DNA of 64,000 nt from Mycteria americana. Taxonomy: Eukaryota; Chordata; Aves; Ciconiiformes; Ciconiidae. Made by a program: the position numbers and the translations under genes. Positions 18,501 to 64,000 of the stretch are shown here, in pieces; the first letter of the stretch is position 1; every line of letters starts with the position of its first letter. The notes below the pieces were generated by a model, which ran no database searches, was not told where the DNA came from, and saw nothing but the letters and a program-made list of their open reading frames with translations. The DNA is taken from the NCBI RefSeq assembly GCF_035582795.1, contig NC_134371.1, positions 48,525,001 through 48,589,000 on the forward strand, written 5' to 3'.

Positions 18501-18566
18501 GATCTTCTTGGCCAGCATGATACTGCGGTTCACGGCGCGTTTCTTCTTCTTCCCCCCCTGGGTCAT
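3563..18566 (-). CDS. MFSD14A: MFSD14A (HIAT1), complete 12-exon coding sequence
   Basis: Hippocampus-abundant transcript 1, a 12-TM major facilitator superfamily solute carrier (substrate uncertain, sugar-porter-like). Exons in transcript order: 18480-18566, 12849-12944, 11626-11688, 10878-11005, 9649-9763, 7021-7239, 6637-6750, 6077-6148, 5510-5622, 5240-5337, 4441-4604, 3563-3769. Every junction has GT and AG, phases agree, and the lengths sum to 1476 nt, giving 491 aa, close to the 490 I recall for human. The start is MTQGGKKKKRAVNRSIMLAKK. MFS motif A (GALSDVWGR, residues about 94-102) is in exon 4, YVADITQEHERSMAYGL in exon 5 and PESLPEKMRPASWGAPISWEQ in exon 6. The C-terminus ends KEPLLQDTNV with a dileucine. 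Family differences cluster in the last luminal loop (exon 11) and the C-terminal tail, as expected. Expressed from a CpG-island promoter. Confidence 0.97.
7947..8860 (+). mobile_element. Endogenous retroviral LTR (ERVL/ERVK-like, solo or partial)
   Basis: The block differs in composition from the surrounding intron. It has LTR architecture on the plus strand: a TATA box (TATAAAA, 8196-8202), a polyadenylation hexamer AATAAA at 8579-8584 and a U5-like stretch ending near 8627 in CAACACA. Beyond that (8628-8860) the sequence could be leader or further LTR. No gag, pol or env reading frame follows, so this is a solo LTR or a strongly truncated copy. Boundaries are approximate; I saw no convincing target-site duplication. 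The family name is inferred from resemblance to avian ERV LTRs. It lies antisense within an MFSD14A intron. Confidence 0.6.
8396..8512 (+). repeat. Three-copy imperfect tandem repeat inside the LTR
   Basis: The core GTGTCYGGCCGTGTTA recurs at about 8408, 8448 and 8475, mostly preceded by CGCGTT or TGTTT and followed by ACTCATATTCTTG or a similar sequence. The copies lie between the TATA box and the polyadenylation hexamer, so they would fall in the R or U5 part of the transcript. Confidence 0.7.
12945..18479. other. MFSD14A intron 1
   Basis: A 5.5 kb intron between the first coding exon in the CpG island and exon 2. Apart from the CR1 remnant at about 13950-14290 it holds AT-rich unique sequence with small homopolymers. 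GC content rises sharply from about 17600 towards the promoter island. Open frames at 17508-18069 lie in GC-rich DNA and show no recognisable protein. Confidence 0.6.
13950..14290 (+). mobile_element. Old CR1 LINE 3' remnant
   Basis: Degenerate CR1 phrases occur in the right order, among them a CAGGCTGAGG-like start, GGGGATCTTATCAACCTGTATAAATA, ACAGGCTGCCCAGTGAGATT and CCTTCCAACCTCAA near the end. The frame is open for only 93 codons and no RT catalytic part is present. It lies within MFSD14A intron 1, antisense to the gene. It is more diverged than the copy at 43160. Confidence 0.7.
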
Positions 18567-27052: not shown

Positions 27053-36263
<9,211 letters not shown>

Positions 36264-43948: not shown

Positions 43949-46900
43949 AATATCCCAAATGGTACTCAGGGTGCATAGACCTTTCTGAATCTAGTAAGTG
44001 CTGCTGAACTGGGTTATGAACAAGATTTTACATACATATAATTTTAACTGCCAAATTTGGACTGCTATCATTCAACAATGCAGTTCTTTCTCCTCCCGAT
44101 ATGTAATCATTCATGTCTGTGTAATTTTTTTTTTATAGCCCATAATGTTAAACATTTCTAATAATCTTAAACCTTGTATTTCTCACTTTAAAATGTCACT
44201 ATTAATGTATTCCATCTTCCTCATACTCAATACAGGTTTCTTCTTTGTTCCCTCCCATAAGCTATCTATACTTGTCAGCTGTTCCTCCCCCAATACACAG
44301 CACTTTTCAACTAAACCACTGCAAATCACTTAATAATTTTTAAACTTACCTTGCTCTTCCTTTTCAGTTTGTTACTCATTCTTCTCGCTGGATACATTAT
44401 AATGTGTATTAAGTACACTATGGAAAAAATAAACTATGTTTTTCTTAGAGCTTGAATTCTTCTTCAGAAGCGTTATTAAAAGCAAATCCTCTAGCAAAGT
44501 TTTTTCCTTACTCTTCTAGCAGAAACTGAGTGACAAAGATTTTTTTTTTTTTTTACATGAAGGTTTCCTTCAGGCAGTATTTCCAACTTCTCCATTTACA
44601 TTAAAAGAATTTTTAACTGGTGAAAAACATTAAAAACATCACTGCATTCAAATAATATTTTCATGACGAGAATATCAAGCACAATACAGTAGAACACTGG
44701 TGGACCTTGCTCCTGCAATGTCATCTAGCTCCCTAGCCACAACCCTATCTTGGCCTTTTTAAAATTATGCAGATACTTTTTAGCACTGGCAACTGCACTT
44801 AATAGAGCAGTTACACATTAAATTGTAATTGCTAAAGATCAACCAGTGATTTCTTTTCAACTTTGCTCCAAAAACCTAGGCTTTTGCCTAGGCTGTATTC
44901 ACTGGCCTCTCACTCAACCAGGAAATTCCCCCACTGCCAAGTCTAACAAAGGGAATGCATTTACATATTAACTAACATCTAATTTCAGACAACGCTATAA
45001 ATTGCTTAGGACTCAGGTAAGGTTTTCTTACACGTTGACAGAAAACCTAGCAGAAAGGGAACTTAATACTGCTGAGTTTTTTGATGATCTCACAAAGGCT
45101 TTTTGTTCGTTTTGTTTCTTTTGGGGGGGGAGAAATCACCATTCTAATCTATCTATCAGCCAGGAAAAGTTGGGCATTGTGAATCTTAAATGTGAATTTT
45201 GTGGCTAAATACTCTTTAAGCCCACCCCACCCCCTTTATCCTTTACACCAAACCTAAGAGTCCACAGATAAGATTTCTTTGACTGATGAGAATTTTCTTT
45301 GATGAATATTAAAGAAATCACATATTGAGTAGAAATATTCAGCATTCAGGAAATTCAGGCCCTCATTGAGCTAAATCTAGCACCAGTATTTCTTGTAAGA
45401 TGAAGACTTCAACTATGTGCACAGTAGTGCAATAGTTTTATATTGACATAACAGTCATTAAGCCAAACTCTGCCTGCCAGCATAGAAATTTGATACAACC
45501 TGCCTTAACTGCCTCTCTCTTTTTCAAACAGTACATACACTGTGTTCATTGTATAGATCACAGTATAGAAAGAACCTAGTAGTCACATTCAGATTCTGTG
45601 AGCAAGGAGGCATTCAGTTCTCAGTTTTAGTTCAAATGCCCATCGCTCCTCAAGCATAGAGGAGTGCAATGCCATGAACTGAAGCATTGCCCGAATGCAA
45701 CTCCTGCAGATGTATCAAGCAAATGAAAGAGCTTGATTTAAGGTGCTGAAAGACTGAACATTGAATGTAGCCGGGGTTCAGCTACAGCTTACGCTTATGC
45801 TGTTCATGAATTACTAATCAAGTCTGGGTGCTGGAGGCAATGCAGCCACCCTCGGTCAAGGTGACCTAGTTTGAGTAGAGTAACACAAACTAGATACTAC
45901 AGTGAAAATAAATCTGTAGACACCTACTGCAGAAAGCTAGTAATTACAAATAGACACCTGAACAGTGTACTGAAGGGGTATGAACATAAGACAAGAAGAT
46001 TCAAAAATTCAATGGGAAAATCATGAACTCATAACCATCTCACATTATTATGCTAGATCCTAAGAGGTACAGATCTTAAGAATCTCTCCTCCCCTCTAGA
46101 GACACCCTCTATTGATGTGATCCAGCTGTGCAGCCTCCTGCGTGCCAATGAAGGCATGGAGCCTGTGCAAGCAGCATGCATATGGGTATGAACTGAAGTA
46201 ACTGGTGAAGAATAAGCCCAGGTGGCAAGCAATTGAAGAATAACAAGAGAAGAACAACTATATCTAGCAAGCCTGCTCCAAAGATCAAGCATGCATTGCC
46301 CTCACTTAACACTACCAAATCTGGAGCTGTTCTAAGCAGACACATGTGATTTGATTTCCGTAGGTACCTGGTTCAGACGATGCCTGCCTTTTTCTTGTTA
46401 TTGCAAACAGCAGCATAACTAGCATAAGGAATTAGGCTGTGTAGGCAGCCTGTAGGATTATTAAAGACATAGAGTCACTCCTAACAATACATTGCTCTAA
46501 ATAAAGCACTTTTATACTTACTATCACCATAGTCTTTCCCCAAACCAGTATTTTTGCTACGCATTCTACTTCTACAAACCAGAACATCACACATCCCAAA
46601 CCAATGGTTCCTTATCTCCCAGAACTGTAATTGTCAATCACAAGTTCTCACAGTGCCTAACAATGTACAAGGGAATTATGAACTACAGTTTCTAAAGGAA
46701 GAGGTTATTGTAAATCAGTTTCTCCACAACTACCACTTCCCTCAAACTCACCCTGCAGCCTCTAAAGAAATTTGATGTTGCTTATTCTTTTATAAAAGAA
46801 AAGCACACGACAGAGCTAGAGTCTACTCTACCAAACTGTCTAAACAGCAACAGTTTTTGTGGAGCAGGTCCTGTGTCCTAACTTAACAGAGAACAGATGC

Positions 46901-47849
46901 ACAGGTCAGGCCCAACTCAGTCCACATACAAAGAGTTCAGATGAATCAAACGCAGTGCCTATGGAGAAAGGCAACCCCACAGATTTTGGGAGAAGCAGTC
47001 CATCACCTAACATTCATTCTAAACCCCATTTTGTCAGTCTGCATATATGTTCTTTGAAAAGCAAGGGTTGCCTTAGATCCCAACCCTCCTGTGTAGAGGC
47101 CACCGTGACAGATAAGCTTCCCTCTGTGGTGCTCACTCTGTTTTAAAGAGGTTTGTTGCATATGCTCTTTATGTCCCAAATAACACAACCTTCCATTGCA
47201 GAAAGCAGTCTCAGTCGCCTCCACCCAATCATTCCTTAAAAATCTTTTCTCTGGTATCCAAGTCTTTCTCACTCTGATTTAAAATATAATTTATAGGATT
47301 CAATAAAATGAAACAACTTGGAGTACCTTTTAGTGTTTATCTTTTACCTTCCAGGCTACTCCGTAATATGTATTATCTTATTATGTTCATTATCTCCACA
47401 TCTTCTGGTTTTCTGACTTAATCCATAAGCTTTATTATACTGCTAGAGCGTTTCTCACTTCAAAAACCCAGTACAAAATTGTGATGCCATGAAAATACTT
47501 ATAAAGTGTGCATTTCTGTTGACTTCACAGACACCACTACATCAAGCGTAGTGAGCATCAGCAGAGCACCAGCCGTACCTACACCGAGAATAAACCCAGT
47601 AAGTGAGCCACAACCTTAGCAACAATGACACAGCTGACCAGATCCATGTCCCTTCCCAACTTCACAGATAGCTGCTTCCCCACAGTAACTTCACCTTCAC
47701 CACTCCCCTCCCTCTTCCCCAGACCATTCCATTTACAGACATTTCTCTCAGTATCTATCTCCCCAAATCCCACTCTGCCCCTCCCCAGCCTGCTCCCACA
47801 GACCTGCTTCCCACCCCGTCCACCAACCTCAAACGTCTCCCCCTCCCAC

Positions 47850-48520
47850 ACCAAAGGCCTCCCTCAGGTTCTTCCCTCATCCATAACCCCTGCAGCGCTC
47901 CCTCCGGGGCAGCCTCAGCCGGGCTCTGCTCCTCCCGGTCCCAGCCCAGGCCTCCCACCTGCAGCTCCCGGCCGGCGGCCCAGCTCGCCCCTCGCTGCCG
48001 GCTCAGCTCCCACCAGCCACCCGGTGTTTCCGGGTGCCGCGGTCCCGTCCCGCAAAGGCTCCGGCTGCAGCCGTGGCCCCGCCCACTCCGTTCCCAGGGC
48101 CGCGGCAGGCAGCGCGCCCCGCCCGTCGCGGGCCCCAGAGCCGCCGCAGCGGGCCGCCGAGCGACAGCCTGCCGGTCTGAGAGCGGCCGGGCCGGGTTCT
48201 TGCCTGCTGGAGGCGGGCAGGGGTTAGCAGGGGCTACGGTGCGGGGGCCGCTGCATGAGGAAGAGCGATGCGGGGCAGGAAGGGCCCGCAGGGCTGTGGG
48301 GCGAACGCCTTGCGGCTGAAGCGGCGGCCGGGGCAGAGGGGTCCCTTTTCAAACGGGGCTTCCCGCACCGCCGCCCCCCGCCGCCCCGGCACTGGCTGGG
48401 GCCGCCCCGGCGGCCGTTGGGGAGGGCGGCGCGCGAGCGGCGGCGCGCGGGGCCGGCGCCACCACAGGCAGCGCCTGCCAGTGAGCGCTCTTCCGTCAGG
48501 GACGGAAGGACGGGGAGTGT
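47850..48520 (-). promoter_or_regulatory. SLC35A3: CpG island promoter and non-coding first exon of SLC35A3
   Basis: An abrupt GC- and CpG-rich island after 11 kb of AT-rich intron. A plausible donor on the minus strand, GCTGCAG|GTGGGAGG, places the end of a non-coding first exon at 47959. GC boxes (CCCCGCCC) lie at about 48076 and 48118. No TATA box was seen. Start site not determined; probably about 48050-48250. Plus-strand open frames here (47625-48227, 48268-48621) are CpG-island artefacts. Confidence 0.65.
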
Positions 48521-49474
48521 TTCACCGAAAAAAGGCTGTTAATAGGGGTGTTTCTGCAGTGAGCGACACGAGTATTTCGTATGAAATCCATGATAAATTT
48601 ATTAAAGAAGTGCAAGGCTAGTTCGAGTTAAGATCTAGACCTCTCAAAGAGGACCTTACTGCATATTCCAAAGAAACAAATTGTCCACCAGATTTTGCAG
48701 ATCGTATTTAGGCAAAACTCCTTTATGCGTCAATTACAGCTTCAGACACCGAGGCTGGTTTACTGATGGTTGGCAAAGGATAGTGTGTCCTGTACACAAA
48801 TCCAAACCGGGTGGAACCCTGGCCCCACTGAAGTTGGTAGCAGAACTTGAATGGAAATACATTGCGTCAATTACAATTGTAAACCATGGGAGACAAGCAT
48901 ACTAGTAACAAATGTAATTTCAATACTAGGCACGTGTTCAATAAGTTAATTAGAAGTATGCTTGAGGAGCATGCACTTTGTTAACACCAAACGCGCGTAG
49001 CCCATGGCTAACGCTGATGCAGGAGCTGTAGGAGCAGCAGTACAATGGGCACACCGCTACTAACAAGGTGCCTTTGTCACTGCACAAACAAGGCAGCTCT
49101 GGCAGCTCCAAAAGAGTTTGCTGCAAGATGCGGAACTGCTCCTGAACTCAAAAACAGGCCATGGTCTTTCTGTGACCACATTTACTGTACCTGCTTGCAG
49201 ATGTCAGCATCATTCTTGAAATTAAACTCGCAGATATAGCGAGTATCACAGGTTAGACTAAATATGTGAGAAAAGGAGGCAAGATACTATCAGTTTTATG
49301 AACTTAATTAAATTTCCATTCCTTCCCAAGGGAAAATGCATTGTTTTTCAGCAGCTTTTAGACTATCAGCCTAACCTGGGGGGCATTGCCTCATATGCTT
49401 CTCTACAGAACTCTAGGTATTTGCAATCAGTTTGAACAGCGTTCAGCACTTCTTTGCTCTGAGCTGTTTGGCTT
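48521..49474. other. Gap between SLC35A3 promoter and the 3' end of the repeat gene
   Basis: About 1 kb with no gene recognised. It contains the ancient repeat fragment at 48800-48880 and short open frames without recognisable product. Confidence 0.5.
48800..48880 (+). repeat. Ancient amniote retroposon fragment
   Basis: AACCCTGGCCCCACTGAAGT at about 48815 matches the CTGGCCCCATTGAAGTCAATGG phrase common in old amniote CR1/L3-like or SINE 3' ends. Strongly decayed; family uncertain. Confidence 0.5.
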
Positions 49475-50078
49475 CTCTAATTAATAAACTTTAATTAACC
49501 CCCCAAAATTTCAGTCCCATGGAGTTTTTTTTTTTGCTTTGCAACCTCCATATTGAACATGCGTTCGATTACAATAGACTAAAACCAATACCCTGATACT
49601 ATTTTAGCATCTTTTCTTCTGTCCCATGGAGGACTGCTTATCAGATGTCTATGTTAGCCCTATTTTATGTGATGATGACCAGGCACGGTGCTCAGTTTGC
49701 ATACAACAATTTGTTTGACCTCCTCCGCTTTGGTTAATAACCAAATCTTTTCTAAGTATTTGCTTGTCACACCAATCAGATTTCAGGTAGGCGTTCATCG
49801 CATTACCCATCGGAAATAAAAATAAATCATATAGGTAGGGTGCAATATGCTCTCTTAAAATGATGCCTAAAACACTGACAAAACTAATGATATCTACTAA
49901 TGACTAAAACCAAAGGTAAACTAATGAGCAGCATGACATACTAGCTAGACATACAACATAACAGCCAAGTAGCATCTGCCAATTTGACTTGAGGGTATTT
50001 TTTTTCTTACATCAACTAATTAATCTAATATTACTGAATATAATCCATGTGTAGGATGCCAAGCAACTCTTCAGAATT
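49475..50078 (-). other. Probable 3'UTR of the tandem-exon gene
   Basis: Follows the TGA at 50079-50081. The only candidate polyadenylation hexamer before the SLC35A3 promoter is ATTAAA (plus-strand TTTAAT at 49490-49495), without a strong GT-rich element after it. The end is therefore tentative. Confidence 0.35.
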
Positions 50079-50177
50079 TCATATAGACCATTTTGATGTA
50101 GCAGCAGAGAGACCAAAGGCACTCAAAACACTGAGTAACAGCAGGAATCGGGGAGTGGAGTGTTTCCCAGCAGAGCT
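50079..50177 (-). CDS. Terminal exon with hydrophobic tail
   Basis: The acceptor is a strong pyrimidine tract (TTCTTTTTTTATAG). It is read in phase 0, as set by the preceding exon, and encodes 32 residues then TGA. It starts with small residues (Ser-Ser-Ala-Gly), followed by a short basic/polar spacer, then the hydrophobic stretch FLLLLSVLSAFGLSAAT and five final residues. This layout (small omega-like residues, spacer, hydrophobic tail) fits a GPI-anchor signal; a single membrane anchor is the alternative. Confidence 0.6.
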   Translation of the reverse strand, partial: SSAGKHSTPRFLLLLSVLSAFGLSAATSKWSI

Positions 50178-53100
50178 CTATAAAAAAAGAAAGCAATTTG
50201 ACAAACCCAATTCAAAATAGTTCTATTTATTACTATTATAAAAGCATAGAAAGTTTCAGAGAAATCTTTTCCCATTAGCCGCCTTCTATTATGTAGACAC
50301 TTCCGATGTTAAAAGATCATGTGCCACATTTATAGCACACGTAAATCAACAGATGTTCAGTTTTCAAGTGATAGGCAGGATCAAAAGTATAAAGCACTTA
50401 TGTGGTCCCACTTTTCCTCATTTTTGTTGATACTATTCCCATATATTATGTTGCACATGTATTCTCGAACGTTTATTCAGATATGGGAAATCTAACAGAT
50501 ACCTCCCAGTATAAACAATACTTTTGGTTTTCTCAATGTGTATAGGAAGAAACCAGTAGAAACTACAAAGAGGAAAAGTGCTTACCACTTGACTGCCGCC
50601 TGAGGAAGGTGAATTCTGAAAACAAACAAATGAATAAATCTAGAAGTGTTCCTACCCAACGGTTTTGAACACAGTTTTGCCTGTGATCAACAAAATTTTA
50701 ATAGCTTAACCCCCAGCACGGTTTTAAGGTGTTCAAGAGGAAGGTAGCTTTGCAAAGATAAAGTAAATAGTTTTAGTTACACACTCTATCTCATCTTACA
50801 CCTGAAAATTTCAGCTAAAATTGATGAAAGGGCAAAAGTCTATTTTTCTCTCATTCCATTATTATATTCCATACAGAGTTTTCCATCCCTATAGTTGAAA
50901 GAGGACATTAAAAATTGATGAGTACTGGGGGAAAAAAAAAAAAGTGCAAAACCAACCAAGTGACCTGCCGGTGAAAAACTCAAAAGTCTAGCTTATTTAA
51001 AAAAAAAAAAAAAAAGTGAAGGATTAACTGAGCAGAGCCTATAAAAATCTACACAAAGAACAGGAATTTAAAAATAGAGGACAGCAAATTGTAACAAGGC
51101 CACTAACTGGAATGTGAAGCAAGAGAGATTCAGATTTAAAATATAACTGATATTGAAATAGCTTTCCCAGGCTGAGGCCATATTTTCCACAGCAATTTCT
51201 TTAAATATGCTCTAATATAAATGGAACTAATACAGAATATTCTCTTGAAACCAAATCACCCCGAAATTGCTCTATCAACCACCCAGGTTCTTTGTTTACT
51301 AAGAAAAGAAGATGAAAATGCTGTGATGAAAGTATTCTTACCACTTTCCCAGAATAAGTGCTTCCTGAGGTAGGGAAGCCCTGTAAAATAATTATAAACC
51401 ATTTATTTTTGTTGTACAACACTCCTAGTGAATTGTGTCCAAAGAGCACACAGCAGTCTCGAAAATGCCCTAGATATTAGTAGTTTTGATACTGACTTTG
51501 ATTTTACCTTTTTCCTTGCACTTTTTTCCCCTATTTTAATTTAATGGTCTCAAGTAAGCACAGCTGTGTCCTCTTTATTCCAGGAAAGGTTTCAGAGGAT
51601 TTTCAGAGCAATGTATCATTGACTGAACTACAAAGTTTGAAACTGAAACAGTTACTCTGATATTTAAATACATCATTCTTAATAGAATGATCCAAGCATG
51701 TTCCTATGTGTAAGAAACAGAGTATATCAAAACTTTGCTATGGGAGAAATGAATGCTGCTTCATCCTAAGGTTCAAGTTTGAACAAAATATTCCAATTTT
51801 TATTCGTCAGTTTTCTCAGACATTTACCATTGTAACATAATTTTAAATTTCACCCTCATTATTGTTACCTATTTTAAAAACCAATATTGACATTTCTAAC
51901 ATGGTTGTGGAATACTGAATATCCTTACTGGCTTTCCTTGATGACTGCCTCCTGAGGAAGATGAACCCTGAAAAAAGATAGCCATTTTCAACTCTAAGCC
52001 TATTTGTACTTCAGTATATTCTTGCTATCTGGAATAAAGGACCACAGGAGCATGAACACTATTTCGTGTCCAGTCATCCAAAAATCCCAGGGAAAAGCTT
52101 ATCTGAAATATTATTAATATTATGGATATATTAAATACAAATATTTAATATCTTTCTGTCACAAGTATTCTTTTGAATGATGTATTAGAGAATTTAATTT
52201 GACGTTCTCAAGAAGAAAGAGCTGTTTTGTAGTTATGATGTGTTTAATGTATAGAAAGGAAAAAATAATAAGATCCAATTAAACATTAATTCACCTGGAA
52301 TCAGTCTACATTTAGATTTGGCGAGGGGGCGGACAGGGACAACAAAGGTAAATGTTACAGCCCTACTGGAAGAAAGCTCTAATGAGGAAGGTAACCGAAA
52401 ATAAAAGTGGATGCTGAAAAATTAGGTGTTCTACAAGAGTCTTAGTTTTCTGGCAAAGTTGCTCTGCTTATTTGAATGGCATTGCCAACAGGAAATCATA
52501 TAAACTTTGACTCTTTAAGAAATGCCATCAAATATGGTACACAAAATGTCTCACCTTTATGATTCCTTTATAAGAAAATGTAACATTTGTGCCCACTTTT
52601 TAATAACAGGTGGATACATCTTATTTTCTATAAGAGATAAACTAAAACATTGTGTGTGCTTATTTATATCTCCTGCCATTGAATGACAACAAGAGCAAGG
52701 TCTAAATTATAGTAAAAAAGTGGTCTGAAATGGGAGAAGATGAAAATACATATAGTCAAATGTCAACTATTATTTCCTTCAAAAAGAAAAAGAAAGTATT
52801 TTCTTCAAAAGAAGCCAGAAATACTTAAGACAATGCATATAAAATCAATGAAAAAGCGAGCCCTGAGTAAAAAGTGTATGATTACTATGAATTTAAACAG
52901 AAATAGCTGTTGAGAAGTCCCTTACAAAAAAAAAAAAAAAAAAAAAAAAGGATCCTGTAATCTCATTCTGTGATTACTAGAACTAATCCAGAGATTGACT
53001 AGAAGTTCAGTTACAGAGTAAAATTCTGGCTCAAAACTATGGAACTGTATGAAAATAAATATTGTGTTTGATTTGTTGAGATTATCCCATATAAGTAAAT

Positions 53101-56100
53101 CATGTGACACTCTTTGCATATTTAAGTAATTCTCAGAAAAAACGTCTAGTCCGTAACTAACTGAACAGAATTTTTTTAACAGGCTTATAAGAAAAAAGGT
53201 AAACTTGAAATTTTTTTACTTACTGGTTTACCATGCTGTCTGCCTCCAGAAGAATATGAGCCCTGTAAGAATTCAATCAGACATCTATTAATTGAATGAA
53301 AAAATCTCCTATCACTGTCTTGAGACAATTTGTGCAGTACTTGGACCAACTTATTTGCATGTTGTTTGAACAAAAAGTAACTGGGGTACCTAAAACTTAA
53401 ACTATCTACTACATACCAAAACAATGGCAATTTGTTATTCCGAAACAAGAAAGTGGTGTTATAAAATACAGTATAGTGATTATAGTTTTACACAGAGCAG
53501 TAATTCATTGTAACCAATTCTTTTATTCAGCTGAAATGACTTTAATTGATATTACCTCAACTATTTAAGCTCAGTAAAATGGCCAAATGAATGTATCTTT
53601 CAGCATCAAGTAACTGATGTGATCCAGACAGTACAGGGAAAGAGTTAGGAGTGATGGGATGGGAAAAGAATATACTCACCTGCCCGCCATACTGGCTGCT
53701 TCCTGAGGGAGAAGATCCCTATTAAAAAAATCACAGGAAACCTAAGTGCTTAAGTGTTGGCAGAATAACAGCAGTTACTTTTTTTTTTTTTTCTGTGCAG
53801 AATGAAACGTCACAGAAGGACCTTTTGACAGGGATCTCAGTAGAAATCTGGAAAGTATATTAATCTAAAAAGGTGCAGTGAAAGACTTCTGACTTAATTC
53901 CACTAAGTTCCTTAAGAGTTGAAAGTAGCAGATTTGGCAAACAGTCACAAAACACCTGCTAAGATGATTCTCTGACATAAATATACAGATATAAAGTTTC
54001 TTTAAGTATGGCTCTGTTCAAGAGAAAAAAAAAATCTACTTTATTTGTGATTTTCTGCTAGGTCAAACGTGTTCAGACAGTATCATGTGTATTATTGTAA
54101 GAGCATCCTTATTATTCCAAATAAGTAATTCAGGAAAAAATTGTTTTGCAGCTCTTAAAAATCCTCCCCATGCTACAAGAAATTATCTTAATAAAGTGAT
54201 ACTGGACTCAAATGCTTGCCAATGGAGTAAAAAGAAATTAAATTATTTTTTAGTATAGCAGAGTGAAACATTGCGAAGTGATACTAATGAAAAATATGTT
54301 CCATCTTCTTATTAGATAGCCAGCCATTACATCTGTTAACTATTTGGGCTAGTAAGATTTCTTGATCATTGACAAACTACTAAGTCTACAAAAGGTACAT
54401 AGGGAGCTGCTTGCAGTAAGAGACTCGAACTGCAGCTGAAGATGAGGAAAGTAGTATTATTGTGGGTAACACACCAGAATTTATATTTTCAAAGCAATAT
54501 CTACTGGTATATTTTGTACCAGATTTCCAAGTATTTAATCTAAACAAATGCAAAAAGAAGGATAACTTCAATATAATTGAAAACTAAAACAGAAAGTAGA
54601 TTTTGAACTGGTGTCATAGCAATGTGAAACTGAAACATAAACATGGTTAATTAAAATTATCTCTTGAGATAAGAGGCATTCTGAGGTAAAACAACTAAAA
54701 TTATGATCTATTCAGTTTCTTTAAATTGAATTTTATTCATGCTACTCCATTTCAGTTACTGAGAAACGGTCGCTGTTTTCAGATATTTATTGAGAGTAAA
54801 ATGACTCTGAAAAACTGACTGGCAGTATATGCACTGCATCATATTTTTCATTTAATAAATAGCAAGTAGGAAGAAGATGTTGAAAACAAAGAAAAGTTGC
54901 TTGCCTGTCCACCATACTGACTGCTTCCAGAATATGATGAACCCTGTAAAAAGAATGTGAAACTTTTGTAAATAATTTTTTTAAATACCACCTGGCATCA
55001 AAAACACCTGGACCTAATCTAAACAACTCTCATGACACCGATCAACTGGAAGAACTTTACGCAGTTATTAATGCAGTGGCAAATGGCTACTTATCCGCAC
55101 ATCATAGTAGTGCTTTGTGCAATGAGATGAACCCCATGAATTATTCTTCAGTATTTTTTGAGGTAAATACAAAGTAAAATCTTGGCTCTAGTATTTAGAA
55201 AGATATAACTGAAATGTAAAGAGTGATTCAATAAAAGCCACATGCACTCTCTGGAGTTATTATCCCTATCTCTGTGACTAAACCTAACTTAATATTTAAT
55301 GGCTTCTGGGCAAATATGGCAACTGAGCCATGTTTAGTCCTGAGGAACTCATCTGTGTAAACGTTAAAGACAAATGGCCTACCTGTCCACCATGGTAGCT
55401 GTTTCCTCCAAAAAAGCCCTGTATTCAACAAAAATAGCAATGTTTACTCTGTATTAAATTCAATGTCATGTAGAGGAAAAAACAAGAGAACATATTGTCC
55501 TGTTGCAATGATCAAGTCATTTACACTATTGCTAGTATACTTTTCTATTTGGTTGATTAAACAAGTAAAGGATTTAGTTTCGATTCATCCTTATTCCTTC
55601 AGATTATTTGCTTGCAAAGACAAATAAGCTGATAATTTATATGTTGTTTTCAGCACTTCTGATTCTCTGAAGTGGCATATATACCATGAGTGGTAAACTT
55701 ACGGCATGTGGGTTTTGCTTGATTTCATAATCCCAGAAAGAGAAGTAGTCATCTAAGCAATTTTGACTATACTGAGACAACAGAAAACTGAACCCTCCCT
55801 CAAAAGTAAATTAGCTTAATCAGCAAAACAGTGGGTTATTTAGTTTTTTTAAGTATTTACAAAAGTATAGGGAATATACTAATTAGACAGAAAAATGGAA
55901 ATAGCTTTAACTTTTTAAATGCGTTGCTCTGCTCCCACTTGGAGGCATTTTGGGCCAAGATTTTAGATCTAAGTTTCACTAGTTCAATCATACTGTTAAT
56001 AACCATCGTAAGAAGAGCACTATTACACACATGTGTCCAAAATCCAGTACATATACTATGAGATATTTGGGAAACAGATTCTTAGAAAAGTCCCAGGCCT

Positions 56101-59100
56101 CTCTTACAAACCAAAAGAAATTAAATGCTTTGAAGCAGTTTTTCATGTCTGGATATTTTACAGAATTAGCACTAGTCTTCCTTTAATACAGATACTGGAG
56201 AACGTTACTACTTGTTTAATCCAGGGTGGGGAAAGTGCAATTTATTTTCCGTGTATTTGTTTGAAAATAGAAATGCATCTGAGTAGCTAGTTCTGAATAC
56301 AATACTACAGTTGCAAGTCACTTAATATTTTTGTCCTTAGCAGGTTCAAAATTTTTTTTCACATTGTGCTAAAATGAGAACTTTCATCATACATATAAAT
56401 GCACAGACAGAATTATTTCAAGAAATGTAGTTCCTTGGGAATTTTCCAGTATGTGTACATACTATGAAAAATATACAAAGACAAAGAATACTTACTGAAC
56501 TTCCACCAGGGCACACACATCCACCCTGTATAAAACACAACCAAACTTATTTTCCTGAGTCTATGACTGGAAGAGGCCTCTGAATTAGTAAATCAAACTT
56601 CTGCTACTGCAAGAAAACGCAGTATAAAATCCTGCTCATAGACTCACCAAGCTCCATCTAAAAAGTAGTTTCTTTCTCTCTCCACTATCCTTTCAGGCTA
56701 GCTGTGCACTTACTGATCAAATTTTTAAATATAGTCTTCTAATTTCTCATTTAAACTTACAGTAAAAACCTTACTCACCAAAAGGATGAGTAAAAAATTC
56801 TGAGTAGTGCTACAGAAAATAGTTTGGGGTTTTTTTCCCTAAAGAGGCCAGAGCACCTGGAATACATGCAGTACTCTTTCATGCTACAAATGTTACAGAA
56901 AACACTAAAGATGACTTCCAGTGGAGGCCTACTAGGTGATTTCTACTCTGATAAAACTGAGAGGTGGCCAGGGGTTCACCATTCAGTGTCTCACCTTCCA
57001 CATTCCATCTGCATGAAATGTGTAAGAAGAAAAATATTTAGCACCAAAGCAGGTACGGAAGCCCAAATACAATGGCCATTCAGACAGCTACTACTGGCTA
57101 CTCTGGCCTGCAGGATGTCTGAATGACACGGAAAAAGAAAGTAACATGTTGCTGAGGCTTTGGGCAAAAAGGGCAGTGGTGAAGTAAAACAGTTTTTGTG
57201 AAGGAAAGATATGCAAAGTAAATTGTGAGTGCCTGACACTAGCACAACTGAATGGTGTGGAGAAAGAAAAGCGTACCTGTCTATCAGACAGGCTGCCTCC
57301 TGAAGAGGAGCCCTGGAAAAAATGAGTAACTAATTATGTTACTGAGTAATATTCTCACTTGTTCTCTGTGGTCCTTAGGTTTTCAGATTGCTTCTCTTTA
57401 AACATAACAACAAAAATGGGTTTCTTAGAACCACAGTCTGTTTAAGGAAGCATTTCTATGCAGATCATTCACTATATCATGATCATTCACTCATATATCA
57501 TTCACTCATATCATGATCTGACATACCAGACAGACCCATACTTAGCAATCCTCACTCAGTTTGGCTTAAAGCTATTCTTTCTTAGAATGTTCCTTTTTTC
57601 AAAAAATACGTGTCAGTTTCCCTAATGAACTGTGTACCAAACCTGCAAATACTATGAAAGCAGGAGTTTTACCTGTCTGCTATACTGGCTGCTTCCTGAC
57701 GAAGCTATACCCTAAAGAAATGAGAAAGCATTTATATTTGTTGTACATTCTTTAACTTATGATCTGTCACAGAAAGACACACTTTTATTTGTCTTCCATG
57801 GATGCAAGTATCACAGGAATGCGAACACTTCCTTTATAACCATACTGAAATCTATTGGCCTTTACAATGGCTACTGTTTAAACAGAACAATAAAGTTTAA
57901 ATCAAAGTCAGCTTCAGGCAGGTGTGAGTAGTGCTGCTGCACTGGATTGTGTGCTCAGGGCAGCCTCCTGTGTTTTACTTTCCTGAGTGGGCTGACCCAG
58001 CAGAAGGTCATATATTCATCTATTCTGCCTAAACACTGCTTTGCTGTAAGCCACCCCTTTATAAAATATTCTGTTTTTCACAAAACAGAAAAAGACAGAA
58101 AGGTGAACAATGGAAAAAACAACCCATAAATAGAAAAACAATTCTCACCTGTCCTCCATAATGGCTGCCACCTGAGAAAGATGGACCCTGAAGCAAAGTT
58201 GCCAATTATTTCTCTATCAGAAAGCTTCTTTAAGGGTTTTTGAAAGAAAGACTATTTTCTTTCTCTGTTGTACAATGAAAGATTACAGAAAGATAAACAC
58301 TTAACCTATTCCTTTATGTGTTCTATACAAATTAGAGATGGTCTGTAACATATGAATCTTCCTTAATACTGATCATGAGCCATTAGGATTATATACCTAG
58401 TTTTGGGAGACTGTATTTGGACTGAAAATCTCTTTCTCCTTTAATTCCCTCTCCAATAAATATGACAATAAATGTTTTCAGAGGCCAAGGATGAGTTTGT
58501 TGGGGATTTCACTCCATATTAAAGGCTATACCACTAGGCAGCACTATGAACCCTATCCATCATCCTTCATTTCACAAGGGCATGAAACACCTTCCCTTAA
58601 CAACTCCTGACCTTCTCTCCTGTTCCCCTCCTGAGACATACTACTCCTCTGGTATCAATTCTTACATTGCATTTTGCTGAAGGAAGTGAAGTATTCCATA
58701 GGTTGAGGTAGAGGAGGAATGCAATCTGCTTCCAGCCACTCCTTACTGTTAGAGCTAAGAAACTATGATAGCAGCAGAAGGGAAATGGGTCCAGAAGGAG
58801 GAGGGCAGGTCAGAGGGTAGAACAAGGCCAGAACTGTATTTACTGTGATACAATAGAAGTACTGGCCCTTCATAGTTTTTGTATTGTTTCAGATTATATA
58901 TCTTTACATACCTGATCATCTATTACCAGATTAACAGAGTTTACTCAAAATGTTATTTTTTCAGTCAATAGAAAAGTATAACGTTTTGATGTAGAAGCTG
59001 GGTGTTAGGATAAGGACTACACAGGAAGAGATTCTCACCTGTCCTCCGTACTGGCTGCCTCCTGGAAAAGGTGAACCCTGAACAAAAAGAATTAAACTAC

Positions 59101-62100
59101 ATCCGTGTCATAGTACTCCTTTAAACCATGCTCCATATGAAGGAGAAGTACCTAATTTCTTTCAGTGCAAAACTGAGTGGACTGAACCAGACTGTACAAA
59201 AAAGAGTGAGACTCATCTGCATTTACCATGATGCATCAGAAATTACATCTCCTAAAAACTCTCCTGTGGCTTTGTATCATGTACATTCATAACTGCTATA
59301 TACCTAGCAACAAATCAAATAAAACATGAAAGAAAAACCCCCATATCCTTAAAATGTTCTTTTACATGGAGAACTACCAAGTCTCTTGGATAAAGTAGTA
59401 AACACTCCAAGGGAAGAATTCTCACCTGTCCACCATGCTGGCTGCCTCCTGAGGAAGGTGAACCCTGAATATCAACAAAAAGGGAAACTGAAACTTCTTT
59501 ACACCCATTTCATGGAATCATACAATCATTTCATGAAGCTTTTAAAAATTTTGGTCAGCTTCATGAAGTATTAATTTATTTCAGAAAGACATGACCTCTA
59601 GTCCTGCAAATTTCAGGAGCAAATTGAGTTAACCATGTATTTCACATTCTATTTTTTCTTAGTCTTAAATAATGGTCTTCATCTGAACTTGTTTTATTTA
59701 ATCACACTAGCACCAGAATGCTACAGAGAAAGATTTACTGAGAAGATTTTAGACTAAGATAAATAAAGCTAAGGTAGACAGCTGGGCAGACAATGAATAA
59801 ACTACAAGTTTGCATAGGTCAAAACTACAAAAGTAGGGACTATTAATGCTTACTTGTCCACCATAATGGCTGCCTCCATAAGAAGATGGTCCCTGGAATA
59901 ATATTGAAAATCAGTTATTTCTGAATACATAATTCATGGAGATGAGCGGCAAAGACATCTGTATTTTGTCATTTGACTGTTTGTTTGTAATCTCCCCAGA
60001 ATAAACTCTATATTTTTGTCTTCCTTGAATTCACAGTACTACTACACAGAATAGATCACTATAAAGTTTCTTGAAATATTAAATTGAGTTATCTGGATAA
60101 TCCTTTACTTGTCAAGAGTAAAATAATGGTAAAACAAATATATCATATAAAATATTAAAAGTAAGAGCTTACATGTCCACCATACTGGCTAGCTCCAGAG
60201 GAATATGAATCCTGTAAAGAATACCAAATAAGTGAATTACCTGCTGTAGGATTTCCTTAAATCAAAATATGACTCTCCCAGGACAATAGGAGCAAGAAAG
60301 CAAGGTAAGAGTGAAGGCAGGCAAGCAGGACATTCAGTATGCCTTAATAACTAGAGTTCAAGCCTTACAAGCTAACTTGGAGAAATACCTGAGTTCCTAA
60401 GCAAGTGTGGAAGGCAAAAAACCCTACTGCTTTGTTTGTGTGACTTGTTGGGAAGGTTAAAGCGGCATTCTTTCAAATTCTTTCTCTACTCATTTCTGGA
60501 GAATGGCATTTCTTTATTTGGAAAGCTGAATCCTGGGCCAAAGCCAGCAGTAAAAGATTGGCTACCTAACAGGACCCTGAAAACCAAACCAAGCAAGTTT
60601 ACTGAAACCTCATACAAGAAGACATCTCTTTAAAGAGGGGATATTTGATTTGTTTTTCTTCTTAATGGAATTAGGTCCACTAGGAATCAAAAATGCTCGT
60701 TCATTCTTTGAATCACATTTTGATTCATTCTTTCCCCACACCTATTTTTTTGTGTGAGCTTCATTATGCAAGTTTCACGAAAACAAGGGCACTATTTACT
60801 AAAAAAGCCATCATGTATAATTTTAAGGACATATCATACTCAATGATGAATTTAATTTACTGAGTTTTTGCTCTTTAAACATAGTTCCCATATCAAAACT
60901 GAATTTAATTGAGTTTGTGAATAACCATCATTTTCAAAAGTGGCAAGCTGGCTCTCCTTTTGGAATGAGTGCTTACTTGGCTACTGTATTGGCTGCCTCC
61001 AGAAGAAGATGAGCCCTGGGGGGAAAAAAAAAAAAAAGAAACCAGTTATTTTTCTCTAACAGAACTATTTTAAAGCAAAACTTCTTGAAGGACAGCAGTA
61101 TATAAATTTCTGTTTTAAACTTTTTTGCTTGGGTTTAAAATCCACTCAAAATGTAAAATCTAGCTTTCCCTACTTTGTTAATACATCTAAAATTTAGTGT
61201 GTACCTGTCCACCAGAATGGCTGCCTCCAGAGCCCTTTCAGAAAGGAAATACCAGTTATTTCACTTCAAAGGATGTGACTGAATGATAGGCAGCTTATTT
61301 CTTTCAGTTTAAAATCAGCACACTGAAGAATGACATCCCCACAAAAAGCTTTTAATATTCATTTTTGCAGAGTACTACAGAACTTTTGAGTACTCTGAGC
61401 TTCCACAAGATCTCCTAAGCTCATGAAGAAATGAAACTGTTTTGTGTTTAGTATGTAATGTTAAGCATCTATCAGAAATGTGTCCTTCATAAGGAATCTT
61501 AACTGTGTAAAATGACTTTTCAATTGCCCTGTAAAGAAGATATTAAAGACAATGTTCTGAGGTAGACTGCAACATATAGTTGGGGGAGAACTAAGATCTA
61601 CATTCAGTATGCAAAAGCCATTCTCGCATGCTGAGGTACTGGGTGCATCTATGCATTAAAGTACAGATCAGGAGTGTGCCTTTGAGACAAAACCCCTGAT
61701 AGTTGCCACTCACTGTAGTTTGTTTTGCATCATGGAGCGGTCTCAGAGTGAATTAGTTGGATGCCTTTCAGATTAAATGAAATTGTAAAACGCTTTCTAG
61801 GGGCACACTTAATGCATTCAGATAGTAAACAGACTTTTGGTCCATGGGACCAGACCAGAGCAAACCCTTCCTGAAATGTGTGTAGTGTGGCCATCAGTTC
61901 ATGAGAACTGATTGTTTCACTCTGTAGAGTGAAACAATCCTAGCAGTTTGCAGTACTTGTCGATGTAGACACAACCACTATGTTCCCTCAATCTTTATAC
62001 ACAATCCCTGATTCCAAACTGCTGTCCAAAGACAACCAAGTCAGTAAAAAACCAGAAAATCAGTCCCAATTGGAAGTTTCAAAGGAAAAAAATCCCAACA

Positions 62101-62921
62101 TCAATACTATGAAGGATGTAGAAGACAGGTGGGTAAGAATATTTTCCTGACTGTAGATATATACACATTCCTCCTTCCTACAAGGGAGCACAAGACCAGT
62201 CCTATTTATAATGTAATATTAATTTTTGTATGGTACATTTATGTAGCTGTGTCCAAGCCAGCTTTATGTCAGTTAGCAGTCGGGTAACAATGCCACAGAG
62301 TTCTGTGCTACATACAAAAAGACGCAAATGTTTTCTCCCTTTAGTGCAGCACATGTAGAGCTCCAGTGACATACACGGCATGACTTTCTAACACATGGTG
62401 AACAGAACTGGTCTTGGGAACGCTGTAAACAGGTCTCTCCTGCAAAAGAGCTCTTATCCATATGAGAGGGCTAGCATCATTAAATTACTGATCTATGAAC
62501 ACTAACCTTTCTTGCAGTAAATGATCTAAGAGGAATACAAACACATAAGTCCACGTCCTTAGGGGATATTTTGACATAATTCCAAGGAAGCCTATGGAAC
62601 TGACTCCCGAAGTAAGTACATATATTGTTATGTACCTGCATTTGGGCCAAACAACATTTTTAATTCAAAGACTTCTCTTTGAGTGAATACTATTTCAAAT
62701 GGAAAGAGAAACTGTGAGTGCTGCATGAACGTCCTGTGTGTATTTTTAATTATAACTAAGGTAGATTATTTTCGTAAGTGTATGACTTCTATTAGGTACT
62801 GACTCTTTTCAGCCTGTCTAGCCATTATATTGACAAAACAAACACAGGGCACACTTAAAAGCTCATGAGCATTGCTTACATTTGCAGAGGAATCACTTCT
62901 GACTAAGGTAGGGGATCCACC
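50079..62921 (-). CDS. Unrecognised gene: tandem 39-nt exons encoding a Gly/Ser/Gln/Tyr 13-mer repeat (partial, 5' end outside)
   Basis: Twenty phase 0-0 exons in transcript order: 62880-62921 GGSPTLVRSDSSAN; 61205-61234 GSGGSHSGGQ; 60977-61015 GSSSSGGSQYSSQ; 60173-60211 DSYSSGASQYGGH; 59854-59892 GPSSYGGSHYGGQ; 59426-59464 GSPSSGGSQHGGQ; 59039-59077 GSPFPGGSQYGGQ; 58149-58187 GPSFSGGSHYGGQ; 57673-57711 GIASSGSSQYSRQ; 57277-57312 GSSSGGSLSDRQ; 56496-56525; 55703-55771; 55383-55418 GFFGGNSYHGGQ; 54905-54943 GSSYSGSSQYGGQ; 53680-53718 GSSPSGSSQYGGQ; 53224-53262 GSYSSGGRQHGKP; 51929-51967 GSSSSGGSHQGKP; 51342-51380 GFPTSGSTYSGKV; 50586-50615 NSPSSGGSQV; 50079-50177 with stop. Every exon has an AG acceptor and a GT donor (one GC). 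None has an internal stop. Function unknown; the composition suggests an extracellular or surface low-complexity protein. Probably one transcript, but this is unproven. Confidence 0.75.
52926..52949 (+). repeat. Poly(A) run
   Basis: An uninterrupted run of about 24 A in an intron of the tandem-exon gene. No retroposed sequence was recognised on its left side. Confidence 0.9.
54905..54943 (-). CDS. Repeat exon with a GC-AG donor
   Basis: Encodes GSSYSGSSQYGGQ. The donor reads GGACAG|GCAAGC, that is, a GC in place of GT, otherwise a strong match to the GC-AG class (AG|GCAAG). All other donors in this gene are GT. Confidence 0.75.
55703..55771 (-). CDS. 69-nt non-repeat exon inside the array
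   Basis: 23 codons, phase 0-0, with acceptor TTGTCTCAG and donor GCC|GTAAGT. It encodes a non-repetitive, aromatic and charged peptide ending SFWDYEIKQNPHA, with one cysteine and an acidic pair before it. It splits the array into a proximal set (exons 61205-57277) and a distal set (55418-50586). Not recognised. Confidence 0.6.
56496..56525 (-). CDS. Cysteine-bearing repeat-array exon
   Basis: 30 nt, encoding GGCVCPGGSS, flanked by CAG acceptor and TCA|GTAAGT donor. It contains two cysteines in a CxC motif, which no other repeat exon has. It sits directly before the odd 69-nt exon, which carries a third cysteine. Confidence 0.6.
61205..61234 (-). CDS. Short repeat exon (10 codons) with AAG acceptor
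   Basis: Encodes GSGGSHSGGQ, a unit shortened by three residues at its N-terminal side. The acceptor reads CTGAAAG|GG, with an A instead of the usual C/T before AG, while the donor is CAG|GTACAC. The weak splice sites suggest optional inclusion. Confidence 0.65.
61895..61939. repeat. Two abutting perfect hairpins
   Basis: CAGTTC (61895-61900) pairs with GAACTG (61905-61910). GATTGTTTCACTC (61910-61922) pairs with GAGTGAAACAATC (61927-61939) around a TGTA loop. The region lies in the 1.6 kb intron upstream of exon 61205-61234 and may belong to an old DNA-transposon-like element (about 61590-61990) that I could not name. Confidence 0.8.
62880..62921 (-). CDS. Most 5' visible exon of the tandem-exon gene, repeat-unlike
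   Basis: 42 nt, 14 codons, phase 0-0. Donor AAT|GTAAGC. The acceptor is preceded by a C-run pyrimidine tract (plus-strand G-runs, 62922-62942). The peptide GGSPTLVRSDSSAN starts Gly-Gly-Ser-Pro like the repeats, then diverges to charged residues, so it may be the edge of the repeat domain. It stands 1.6 kb from the next exon. Confidence 0.6.
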
Positions 62922-63566
62922 CTGGGCGGGGGGGGAGGGGGGAGAAAAAAAAAGAAAAATTAGCCTTTGTCTTTGACCATAAACTAAAAATGAAAAAAAA
63001 AAATCCTTAGAATGACTGTTCTATGGTATTTTAAAGGAAGAATATCACAATCTGAAATTAAATTACACTTACACTTCACTTACTTTTCTTAATTTGCCAA
63101 GATAGCAAATAGTCTTTTTCGGCTTGGAAGACCGTAAATCACAAAGTATCATTTTGTACCTACCCATGACTCATTGCCTAGAAAATAAGAATGCTACCCA
63201 TGGTGCAGGAATGTCCTTTACATACTACGTGTTGATTGACCACATATGTTTTGCTTTGGAAAGCATGTATTACCCTATTTCACAATCTAAATAATTCCAT
63301 ATGGATTTAAAAGCACATATGAGAAGTGGCTCAGATTTGTTTTTTTTTTTTAATTTGGTAAACATTGATTTCTGAGACAACTTTTTATGGTTGGCAATTT
63401 TGTAGATGATATTATTTTAGCTTCCCTTCACAACATATCTTTTGTCAATTAATTCTGCTATTTAATGCAATCAATTCTTTTTTTTTTTTTTTGAGAAGAG
63501 ATATACATCTCTCTAAATACTATATGGTAACTGAAAGTCACTGCTCAGAGAATACACCTTGCTGCC

Positions 63567-64000
63567 AACTTTGGGGGTTCCTGGCTTGTATGAGGAATAG
63601 TGTGGCCAGCAGGACTAGGGCAGTGATCGTGCCCCTGTACTCGGCACTGGTGAGGCCGCACCTCGAATACTGTGTTCAGTTTTGGGCCCCTCACTACAAG
63701 AGAGACATTGAGGTGCTGGAGCGTGTCCAGAGAAGGGCAACGAAGCTGGTGAAGGGTCTGGAGAACAAGTCTTATAAGGAGCGGCTGAGGGAACTGGGGT
63801 TGTTTAGTCTGGAGAAGTGGAGGCTGAGGGGAGACCTTATTGCTCTCTACAACTACCTGAAAGGAGGTTGTAGAGAGGTGGGGGTCAGTCTCTTCTCCCA
63901 GGTAACAAGCGATAGGACAAGAGGAAATGGCCTCAAGTTGCACCAAGGGAGGTTTAGACTGGATATTAGGGAATATTTCTTCACTGAAAGGGTTATCAAG
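63567..64000 (+). mobile_element. CR1 LINE fragment running off the right edge
   Basis: A CR1 ORF2 3' portion in plus orientation: CTCGGCACTGGTGAGGCCGC, TTTTGGGCCCCTCACTACAA, GAGCGTGTCCAGAGAAGGGC, GGTTGTTTAGTCTGGAGAAG and GGGAGACCTTATTGCTCTCT all appear in the canonical order. The copy is 5'-truncated at about 63567 and its 3' end is outside the window. Conceptually it aligns with the segment starting near 43370 in the other CR1, but the two differ at many positions, indicating different subfamilies. The minus-strand frame at 63545-63946 is only its antisense shadow. Confidence 0.92.

What the first reader, a model, noticed from the sequence alone, without database searches (positions are those of the whole stretch)
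50079..62921. Undescribed-looking gene built from tandem 39-nt exons encoding a 13-residue GS/QYGG repeat
Seen directly: 20 minus-strand exons, 13 of them exactly 39 nt, all phase 0-0, all with acceptor and donor signals and no internal stop. Each typical exon spells a variant of G-S-x-S-S-G-G-S-Q-Y-G-G-Q. This cannot arise by chance, and selection on the frame is implied because the introns between exons have diverged. I know no gene with this pattern between SLC35A3 and AGL in mammals, so it may be a sauropsid- or bird-specific gene, perhaps a surface, barrier or matrix protein. The function is inference only.
Basis: partly seen in the sequence, partly recalled or inferred. Interest (0 to 1): 0.92.

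Follow-up and report, generated by a model that had tools for sequence, protein, structure and literature searches.

The report
Bird gene of tandem 39-nt exons
A stretch of bird chromosome upstream of the sugar transporter gene SLC35A3 carries what looks like an intact, unnamed protein gene built from about 18 tiny repeated exons that spell a glycine-serine-tyrosine-rich chain with a probable membrane-anchoring tail; no matching annotated protein was found, and its RNA and function have still to be shown.

Summary
On the minus strand, 50079-62921, I find 18 short internal exons (12 of 39 nt, three of 30, two of 36, one of 42) plus a terminal exon: 19, not 20. All are phase 0-0; the joined 256-codon frame is open, while the other sense frames carry 5 and 7 stops. 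The 39-nt copies are 69% identical, but the flanking introns have decayed to chance similarity; pN/pS is 0.52 (bootstrap 0.34-0.80), differences pile up at third positions, and no dead copies were detected above control level. So this is very likely a selected coding gene. The window is avian; SLC35A3 and MFSD14A follow on the same strand. No annotated protein matched in a 5.8-billion-protein set that does hold many bird proteins. A chicken gene list has an unnamed gene, ENSGALG00000046652, between SLC35A3 and AGL (17): probably the orthologue, but its sequence was not seen. The 5' end lies outside the window. Best reading: a surface-anchored, low-complexity extracellular protein; function is inferred.

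The parts
62880..62921 (-). internal exon 1 in window, 42 nt, GGSPTLVRSDSSAN (weak match to the repeat, strong splice signals)
   Evidence: (profile -7.6)
61205..61234 (-). internal exon 2, 30 nt, GSGGSHSGGQ
60977..61015 (-). internal exon 3, 39 nt, GSSSSGGSQYSSQ
60173..60211 (-). internal exon 4, 39 nt, DSYSSGASQYGGH
59854..59892 (-). internal exon 5, 39 nt, GPSSYGGSHYGGQ
59426..59464 (-). internal exon 6, 39 nt, GSPSSGGSQHGGQ
59039..59077 (-). internal exon 7, 39 nt, GSPFPGGSQYGGQ
58149..58187 (-). internal exon 8, 39 nt, GPSFSGGSHYGGQ
57673..57711 (-). internal exon 9, 39 nt, GIASSGSSQYSRQ
57277..57312 (-). internal exon 10, 36 nt, GSSSGGSLSDRQ
56496..56525 (-). internal exon 11, 30 nt, GGCVCPGGSS (the only two cysteines seen; not recovered by the repeat profile)
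55383..55418 (-). internal exon 12, 36 nt, GFFGGNSYHGGQ
   Evidence: (profile -1.7)
54905..54943 (-). internal exon 13, 39 nt, GSSYSGSSQYGGQ; GC donor (CAG|GCAAGC)
53680..53718 (-). internal exon 14, 39 nt, GSSPSGSSQYGGQ
53224..53262 (-). internal exon 15, 39 nt, GSYSSGGRQHGKP
51929..51967 (-). internal exon 16, 39 nt, GSSSSGGSHQGKP
51342..51380 (-). internal exon 17, 39 nt, GFPTSGSTYSGKV
50586..50615 (-). internal exon 18, 30 nt, NSPSSGGSQV
50079..50177 (-). terminal coding exon: 32 codons, SSAGKHSTPRFLLLLSVLSAFGLSAATSKWSI, then TGA at 50079-50081; small residues, hydrophilic spacer, 16-residue hydrophobic stretch: GPI-signal-like
49490..49495 (-). first ATTAAA hexamer downstream of the stop, possible poly(A) signal (consensus match only)

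Best explanation
The array is the 3' part of an intact avian protein-coding gene made by repeated duplication of a small symmetric (phase 0-0) exon. It encodes a chain of about 13-residue modules (consensus G-S-S-S-S-G-G-S-Q-Y-G-G-Q) ending in a hydrophobic signal that most likely directs GPI anchoring. Proposed working: the protein enters the secretory pathway (signal peptide expected upstream, outside the window), is GPI-anchored near S-S-A-G in the last exon, and displays a flexible, nearly uncharged Gly/Ser-rich stalk in which one aromatic or His/Gln 'sticker' per 13 residues could drive weak self-association at an epithelial or gamete surface. Because every exon is symmetric, copies can be gained, lost or skipped without a frameshift, so length can change between species and isoforms. 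Shown: exons, frame, constraint among copies, locus, tail hydropathy. Inferred: transcription, secretion, GPI anchoring, self-association, tissue.
For: The joined 768 nt has 0 stops in frame 0 against 5 and 7 in the other sense frames and 21, 9 and 7 in the antisense frames. The 12 copies of 39 nt are 69% identical, with codon-position identities 0.73/0.79/0.55, while flanks fall to about 0.27. Third-position excess: reached by 22 of 20000 permutations; inner 11 codons alone: 162 of 20000. pN/pS 0.52, bootstrap 0.34-0.80; read in the two wrong frames the copies give pS/pN 0.366/0.284 and 0.272/0.316 against 0.487/0.254 in frame. Synonymous changes from the consensus: 40 of 91 against a null mean of 27.9 (reached by 14 of 5000). 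No decayed copies in the introns above control level. Ser codons keep their type by position (TCN at repeat positions 2-5, AGY at 8), so the copies are homologous by descent. Tail: 15-residue hydropathy maximum 2.23, preceded by S-S-A-G and KHSTPR. Separate from SLC35A3, whose own 5' exon (48118-47975, in a GC-rich stretch) lies about 2 kb beyond the stop codon. A chicken gene list has an Ensembl gene in the same position, with a reported fold change in one data set.
Against: No transcript was seen. 5' exons, start codon and signal peptide are outside the window (no convincing one inside). No orthologous sequence was found: searches (7994 candidates scored; 54 candidates) gave none at E<=10 in a database that does hold many bird proteins. 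The open frame and the multiples of three were partly selection criteria; exons 1, 11 and 12 are weak or absent in the frame-blind profile. A polar TSKWSI follows the hydrophobic stretch, which is not ideal for a GPI signal. pN is 0.25, so constraint is moderate, and the pairs are not independent. Synonymous sites are themselves far better conserved than introns, so part of the conservation could serve splicing. The chicken gene's change was significant on one assembly only, and its sequence and biotype were not seen.
Confidence: 0.6

Rival explanations
1. Coding gene, but the product is secreted or a single-pass membrane protein, not GPI-anchored; the C-terminal hydrophobic stretch stays as a short transmembrane segment, or alternative 3' exons remove it.
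For: Hydropathy drops over the last six residues (TSKWSI), leaving a polar end; symmetric exons would allow alternative isoforms.
Against: The hydrophobic stretch is only about 16 residues, the tail after it 6 residues, and small residues S-S-A-G plus a spacer precede it, the layout of a GPI signal (general knowledge; no trained predictor was available).
Confidence: 0.25
2. A recently dead gene, or a long non-coding RNA whose exons keep an old reading frame.
For: No annotated protein matched; no transcript in hand; chicken ENSGALG00000046652 has no name in the two papers seen and could be annotated as non-coding.
Against: Open joined frame, usable splice sites at all 18 internal exons, pN/pS below 1 in 99.94% of bootstraps, no dead copies detected.
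Confidence: 0.08
3. A displaced member of a known short-exon secreted family, such as the SCPP genes (amelogenin, caseins) or dermokine/suprabasin.
For: [quoted passage not shown] Gly/Ser-rich secreted chains are known for dermokine (recalled).
Against: No Glu and no S-x-E motif in the 256 residues seen, Pro only 5% of the 224-residue repeat part; membrane-anchor-like tail; locus beside SLC35A3; no similarity at E<=10 to any of the 7994 scored candidates, no Pfam match.
Confidence: 0.05

Closest known systems
Chicken ENSGALG00000046652 (Ensembl; listed on chromosome 8 between SLC35A3 and AGL)
   Same: Same place in the listed gene order (MFSD14A, SLC35A3, this gene, AGL, FRRS1, PALMD in a table of PMC11222857, passage); a fold change is reported for it in PMC6826700 (passage). 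Probable orthologue by position.
   Different: Its sequence, strand, exon structure and biotype were not seen here; it has no name in either passage.
SCPP genes (amelogenin, ameloblastin, caseins)
   Different: No Glu, no S-x-E, Gly/Ser-rich instead of Pro/Gln-rich (recalled feature), GPI-like tail, different locus.
Dermokine/suprabasin and other Gly-Ser-rich secreted epidermal proteins (recalled)
   Same: Low-complexity Gly/Ser-rich extracellular chain.
   Different: No similarity among scored candidates, different locus; a membrane-anchor-like tail is here and, as far as I recall, not there.
Fibrous repeat genes with symmetric exons (fibrillar collagens, tropoelastin) (recalled)
   Same: Repetitive extracellular protein built from many small symmetric exons.
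   Different: 13-residue GS/QYGG unit, no Gly-X-Y triplets; tropoelastin exons use another phase (recalled).
FET-type S/Y/G/Q-rich low-complexity domains and spider dragline silk (recalled)
   Same: Composition: Gly, Ser, Gln with regularly spaced Tyr.
   Different: FET proteins are nuclear and silk is arthropod (recalled); no homology among scored candidates.

Membership tests
[quoted passage not shown]
   18 of 18 internal exons phase 0-0; criterion from PMC5118209, passage
SCPP (secretory calcium-binding phosphoproteins) | S-x-E phosphorylation motifs, or an acidic or Pro-Gln-rich chain (recalled) | tested here: not met
   0 Glu, 0 S-x-E in 256 residues; Pro 5.4% and Gln 9.4% of the 224-residue repeat part; N-terminal part unseen
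SCPP (secretory calcium-binding phosphoproteins) | SCPP gene cluster locus (recalled) | tested here: not met
   neighbours seen are SLC35A3 and MFSD14A
GPI-anchored proteins | C-terminal signal: small omega residue, spacer, hydrophobic stretch near the end | tested here: inconclusive
   S-S-A-G, KHSTPR, FLLLLSVLSAFGLSAA present, but a polar TSKWSI follows; no trained predictor available
GPI-anchored proteins | N-terminal signal peptide | not testable with these tools
   5' end lies beyond 64000; the 5 ATG exon candidates found in 50200-64000 have a maximum 9-residue hydropathy of 0.92
Dermokine/suprabasin | sequence similarity | tested here: not met
   no protein at E<=10 among the 7994 candidates scored; these two proteins were not compared one by one
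Orthologue of chicken ENSGALG00000046652 | same position, next to SLC35A3 on the side away from MFSD14A | tested here: met
   SLC35A3 and MFSD14A in the window, window avian, listed order in PMC11222857; the AGL side is outside the window
Orthologue of chicken ENSGALG00000046652 | sequence and exon structure alike | not tested
   no chicken DNA of the locus was obtained; the genome search did not complete in 13 attempts

The most novel reading that the evidence does not exclude
A sauropsid- or bird-specific GPI-anchored, silk-like low-complexity surface protein, missing from annotated protein sets because its coding sequence is cut into some 18 or more exons of about 39 nt, and evolving in length by gain and loss of symmetric exons: a new family of vertebrate surface repeat proteins.
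Probability: 0.4. Interest if true: 0.75.

Novelty: new variant of a known kind. Interest (0 to 1): 0.55.

Why it matters
If transcribed, this is a protein gene in a conserved gene neighbourhood for which no annotated protein was found in a database that holds many bird proteins. A likely reason (inference) is that tandem exons of about 39 nt with low-complexity coding sequence are hard for gene finders. It would give a clean system for exon-array evolution (birth of symmetric exons, free length change) and a candidate avian surface or barrier protein, and it suggests a general search for tandem symmetric micro-exon arrays in other genomes.

Tried and rejected
Minisatellite or chance: rejected; neighbouring exons are 189-1645 nt apart, edges coincide with splice sites, and the tandem-repeat finder's two rows in 45000-64000 cover no exon. 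Extra exons of SLC35A3: rejected; a stop and tail end the frame, and SLC35A3 has its own 5' exon at 47975-48118 in a GC-rich stretch. Dead exon copies in introns: a stretch near 60577 looked like a relic by eye, but the best intron matches to the exon consensus score 26, against 24, 33 and 25 as the best of three control stretches, so no relic is claimed. First exon in the window: none convincing. Homology beyond the exon edges: 4 of 306 flank comparisons exceed z 4, mean z 0.15-0.22. Three of the 91 single changes from the consensus would, taken alone, make a stop (null mean 6.7); the codons as they stand have none. Rfam: 0 matches at gathering score; Pfam and PDB: none at E<=10. Viral contigs: 7 pattern matches, none confirmed; most of the peptides used cross exon junctions, where genomic DNA could not match, so the call says little. 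Literature: 10 searches, seen as listings (one search listed 25 of 538 papers); of the papers listed I read passages of three (PMC11222857, PMC6826700, PMC5118209). Calibration of the protein search with 5 simulated homologues per level: full length at 60% identity scores E 1.6e-46 or better; tail only at 60% scores 1.3e-4 or better, at 50% 3 of 5 pass 1e-3 and 2 of 5 are above 10. The pre-filter by shared words is less sensitive than that; my estimate is that an orthologue below about 70-80% identity could be missed, as could one outside about 141-448 aa or 184-584 aa.
Full report
WHAT IS THERE. The minus strand of 49000-64000 was read in full. Eighteen internal exons and one terminal exon were tabulated. 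Lengths of the internal exons are 39 nt (12), 30 (3), 36 (2) and 42 (1). All begin and end on codon boundaries. The joined 768 nt has no stop in frame 0; frames 1 and 2 have 5 and 7, and the three antisense frames 21, 9 and 7. The consensus 39-nt exon spells GSSSSGGSQYGGQ. Seventeen donors are GT and one is GC.

HOW THE EXONS WERE CHOSEN. I found them by eye and with a scan that itself demanded open frames and lengths in multiples of three, so these two features are partly built in. A frame-blind nucleotide profile of the 12 exons of 39 nt ranks exons 10, 2 and 18 next (21.8, 11.5 and 11.0 bits), then exon 12 at -1.7; exon 1 comes at -7.6 and exon 11 is not listed. Exons 1, 11 and 12 therefore rest mainly on splice signals and open frame.

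IS IT MORE THAN CHANCE. Leave-one-out profiles built from 11 of the 12 exons, with 20 nt upstream and 12 nt downstream, score the twelfth at 35.0-70.2 bits. The best plus-strand score is -1.8. The best other minus-strand scores are 9.7-13.8, the level at which the shorter copies of the same array stand. Using recalled vertebrate consensus matrices, donors rank in the 92nd-99.9th percentile of 3907 GTs and acceptors in the 87th-100th of 4353 AGs on the minus strand; exons 5 and 8 have the weakest acceptors. Good-scoring AG..GT pairs exactly 39 nt apart number 7 in the array (6 open), 1 in the rest of the minus strand, and 0 and 1 on the plus strand.

SELECTION. Among the 12 exons of 39 nt, mean pairwise identity is 0.69; by codon position it is 0.73, 0.79 and 0.55. 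In the flanks of all 18 internal exons it is 0.60 in the nearest 10 nt and 0.26-0.34 beyond. The excess of third-position diversity is reached by 22 of 20000 column permutations, and by 162 of 20000 if the first and last codons, which touch the splice sites, are left out. Pooled pN/pS is 0.52 (bootstrap over codons 0.34-0.80; 0.06% of resamples at or above 1); with a Jukes-Cantor correction omega is 0.39, and the wrong frames give pS/pN of 0.366/0.284 and 0.272/0.316. The pairs are not independent, so these are indications and not exact probabilities. Synonymous sites are also better conserved than introns, so splicing constraint may contribute. Serine codons keep their family by repeat position (TCN at positions 2-5, AGY at 8), which fits descent from one exon and not convergence on composition. 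Introns carry no copies of the exon above control level.

WHERE IT IS. SLC35A3 lies on the same strand at 27056-36215, with a 5' exon matching the emu protein's N-terminal extension at 48118-47975, in a GC-rich stretch. MFSD14A follows at 18566-3566. The window's SLC35A3 is 98% identical to emu, crane and whydah proteins and 95% to gharial, so the window is avian. The array gene's stop codon lies about 2 kb before the SLC35A3 5' exon. AGL gave only two weak matches and is not seen in the window. In a chicken gene table of PMC11222857 (passage read) the listed order is MFSD14A, SLC35A3, ENSGALG00000046652, AGL, FRRS1, PALMD. That unnamed gene is the probable orthologue by position. PMC6826700 (passages read) lists it among genes up in wooden-breast muscle biopsies, with log2 fold change 1.55 on the Galgal5 assembly and not significant on GRCg6a; so transcription from the gene model is reported in chicken, but its sequence and biotype were not seen.

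WHAT THE PROTEIN LOOKS LIKE. The 224 residues before the last exon are 30% Gly, 30% Ser, 9% Gln, 6% Tyr, 5% Pro and 4% His. In all 256 residues there are no Glu, 3 Asp, 5 Lys, 5 Arg and 2 Cys (both in exon 11). The last exon ends the protein with SSAGKHSTPRFLLLLSVLSAFGLSAATSKWSI, with a 15-residue hydropathy maximum of 2.23. That layout resembles a GPI signal, although six residues, mostly polar, follow the hydrophobic part. No signal peptide exon was found in the window, so the 5' end probably lies beyond 64000.

IS IT KNOWN. No Pfam family or PDB chain matches at E<=10, and no Rfam family at gathering score. The 5.8-billion-protein search gave no match at E<=10 for the joined protein (7994 candidates scored) nor for the last 62 residues (54 candidates). 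As a control, the neighbouring SLC35A3 protein found many named bird proteins in the same database (best 120 of 6767 listed), so absence there has some meaning. Simulated relatives at 60% identity would score E below 1e-3 once among the candidates. The weak points are the shared-word pre-filter and the length limits. Ten literature searches gave no listing that describes the gene; most subscription-journal papers and preprints are not held.

MECHANISM AND STANDING. The best reading is a GPI-anchored, flexible extracellular repeat protein with one aromatic or His/Gln sticker per 13 residues, able to change length through symmetric exons. Exons, frame and constraint are shown; transcription, secretion, anchoring and role are inferred. 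It is built like other symmetric short-exon secreted genes (most SCPP genes share the phase-0 rule, PMC5118209 passage), but it fails the SCPP composition and locus tests and is not filed there. The search of the organism's own genome did not complete (13 attempts of the genome search), so conservation across birds, the strongest missing test, remains open.

Noticed in passing
window 3566-18566 (-) and 27056-48118 (-): MFSD14A and SLC35A3, both on the minus strand in the order of the chicken list; SLC35A3 shows upstream exons matching those of emu (48118-47975, 42427-42335), crane (39133-39089, weak, E 0.005) and whydah (44397-44350, weak, E 0.04) proteins.
   Followed up: partly
window 63580-64000 (-): Looks like the 3' part of a CR1 LINE (recalled resemblance, no call tested it); it lies between the first exon seen and the window's end.
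   Followed up: no
window 54905-54943 (-): One exon uses a GC donor (CAG|GCAAGC), the rare functional donor type (recalled), while the other 17 internal exons use GT.
   Followed up: partly
window 56496-56525 (-): A 30-nt exon, GGCVCPGGSS, holds the only two cysteines of the part seen and is not recovered by the repeat profile.
   Followed up: no
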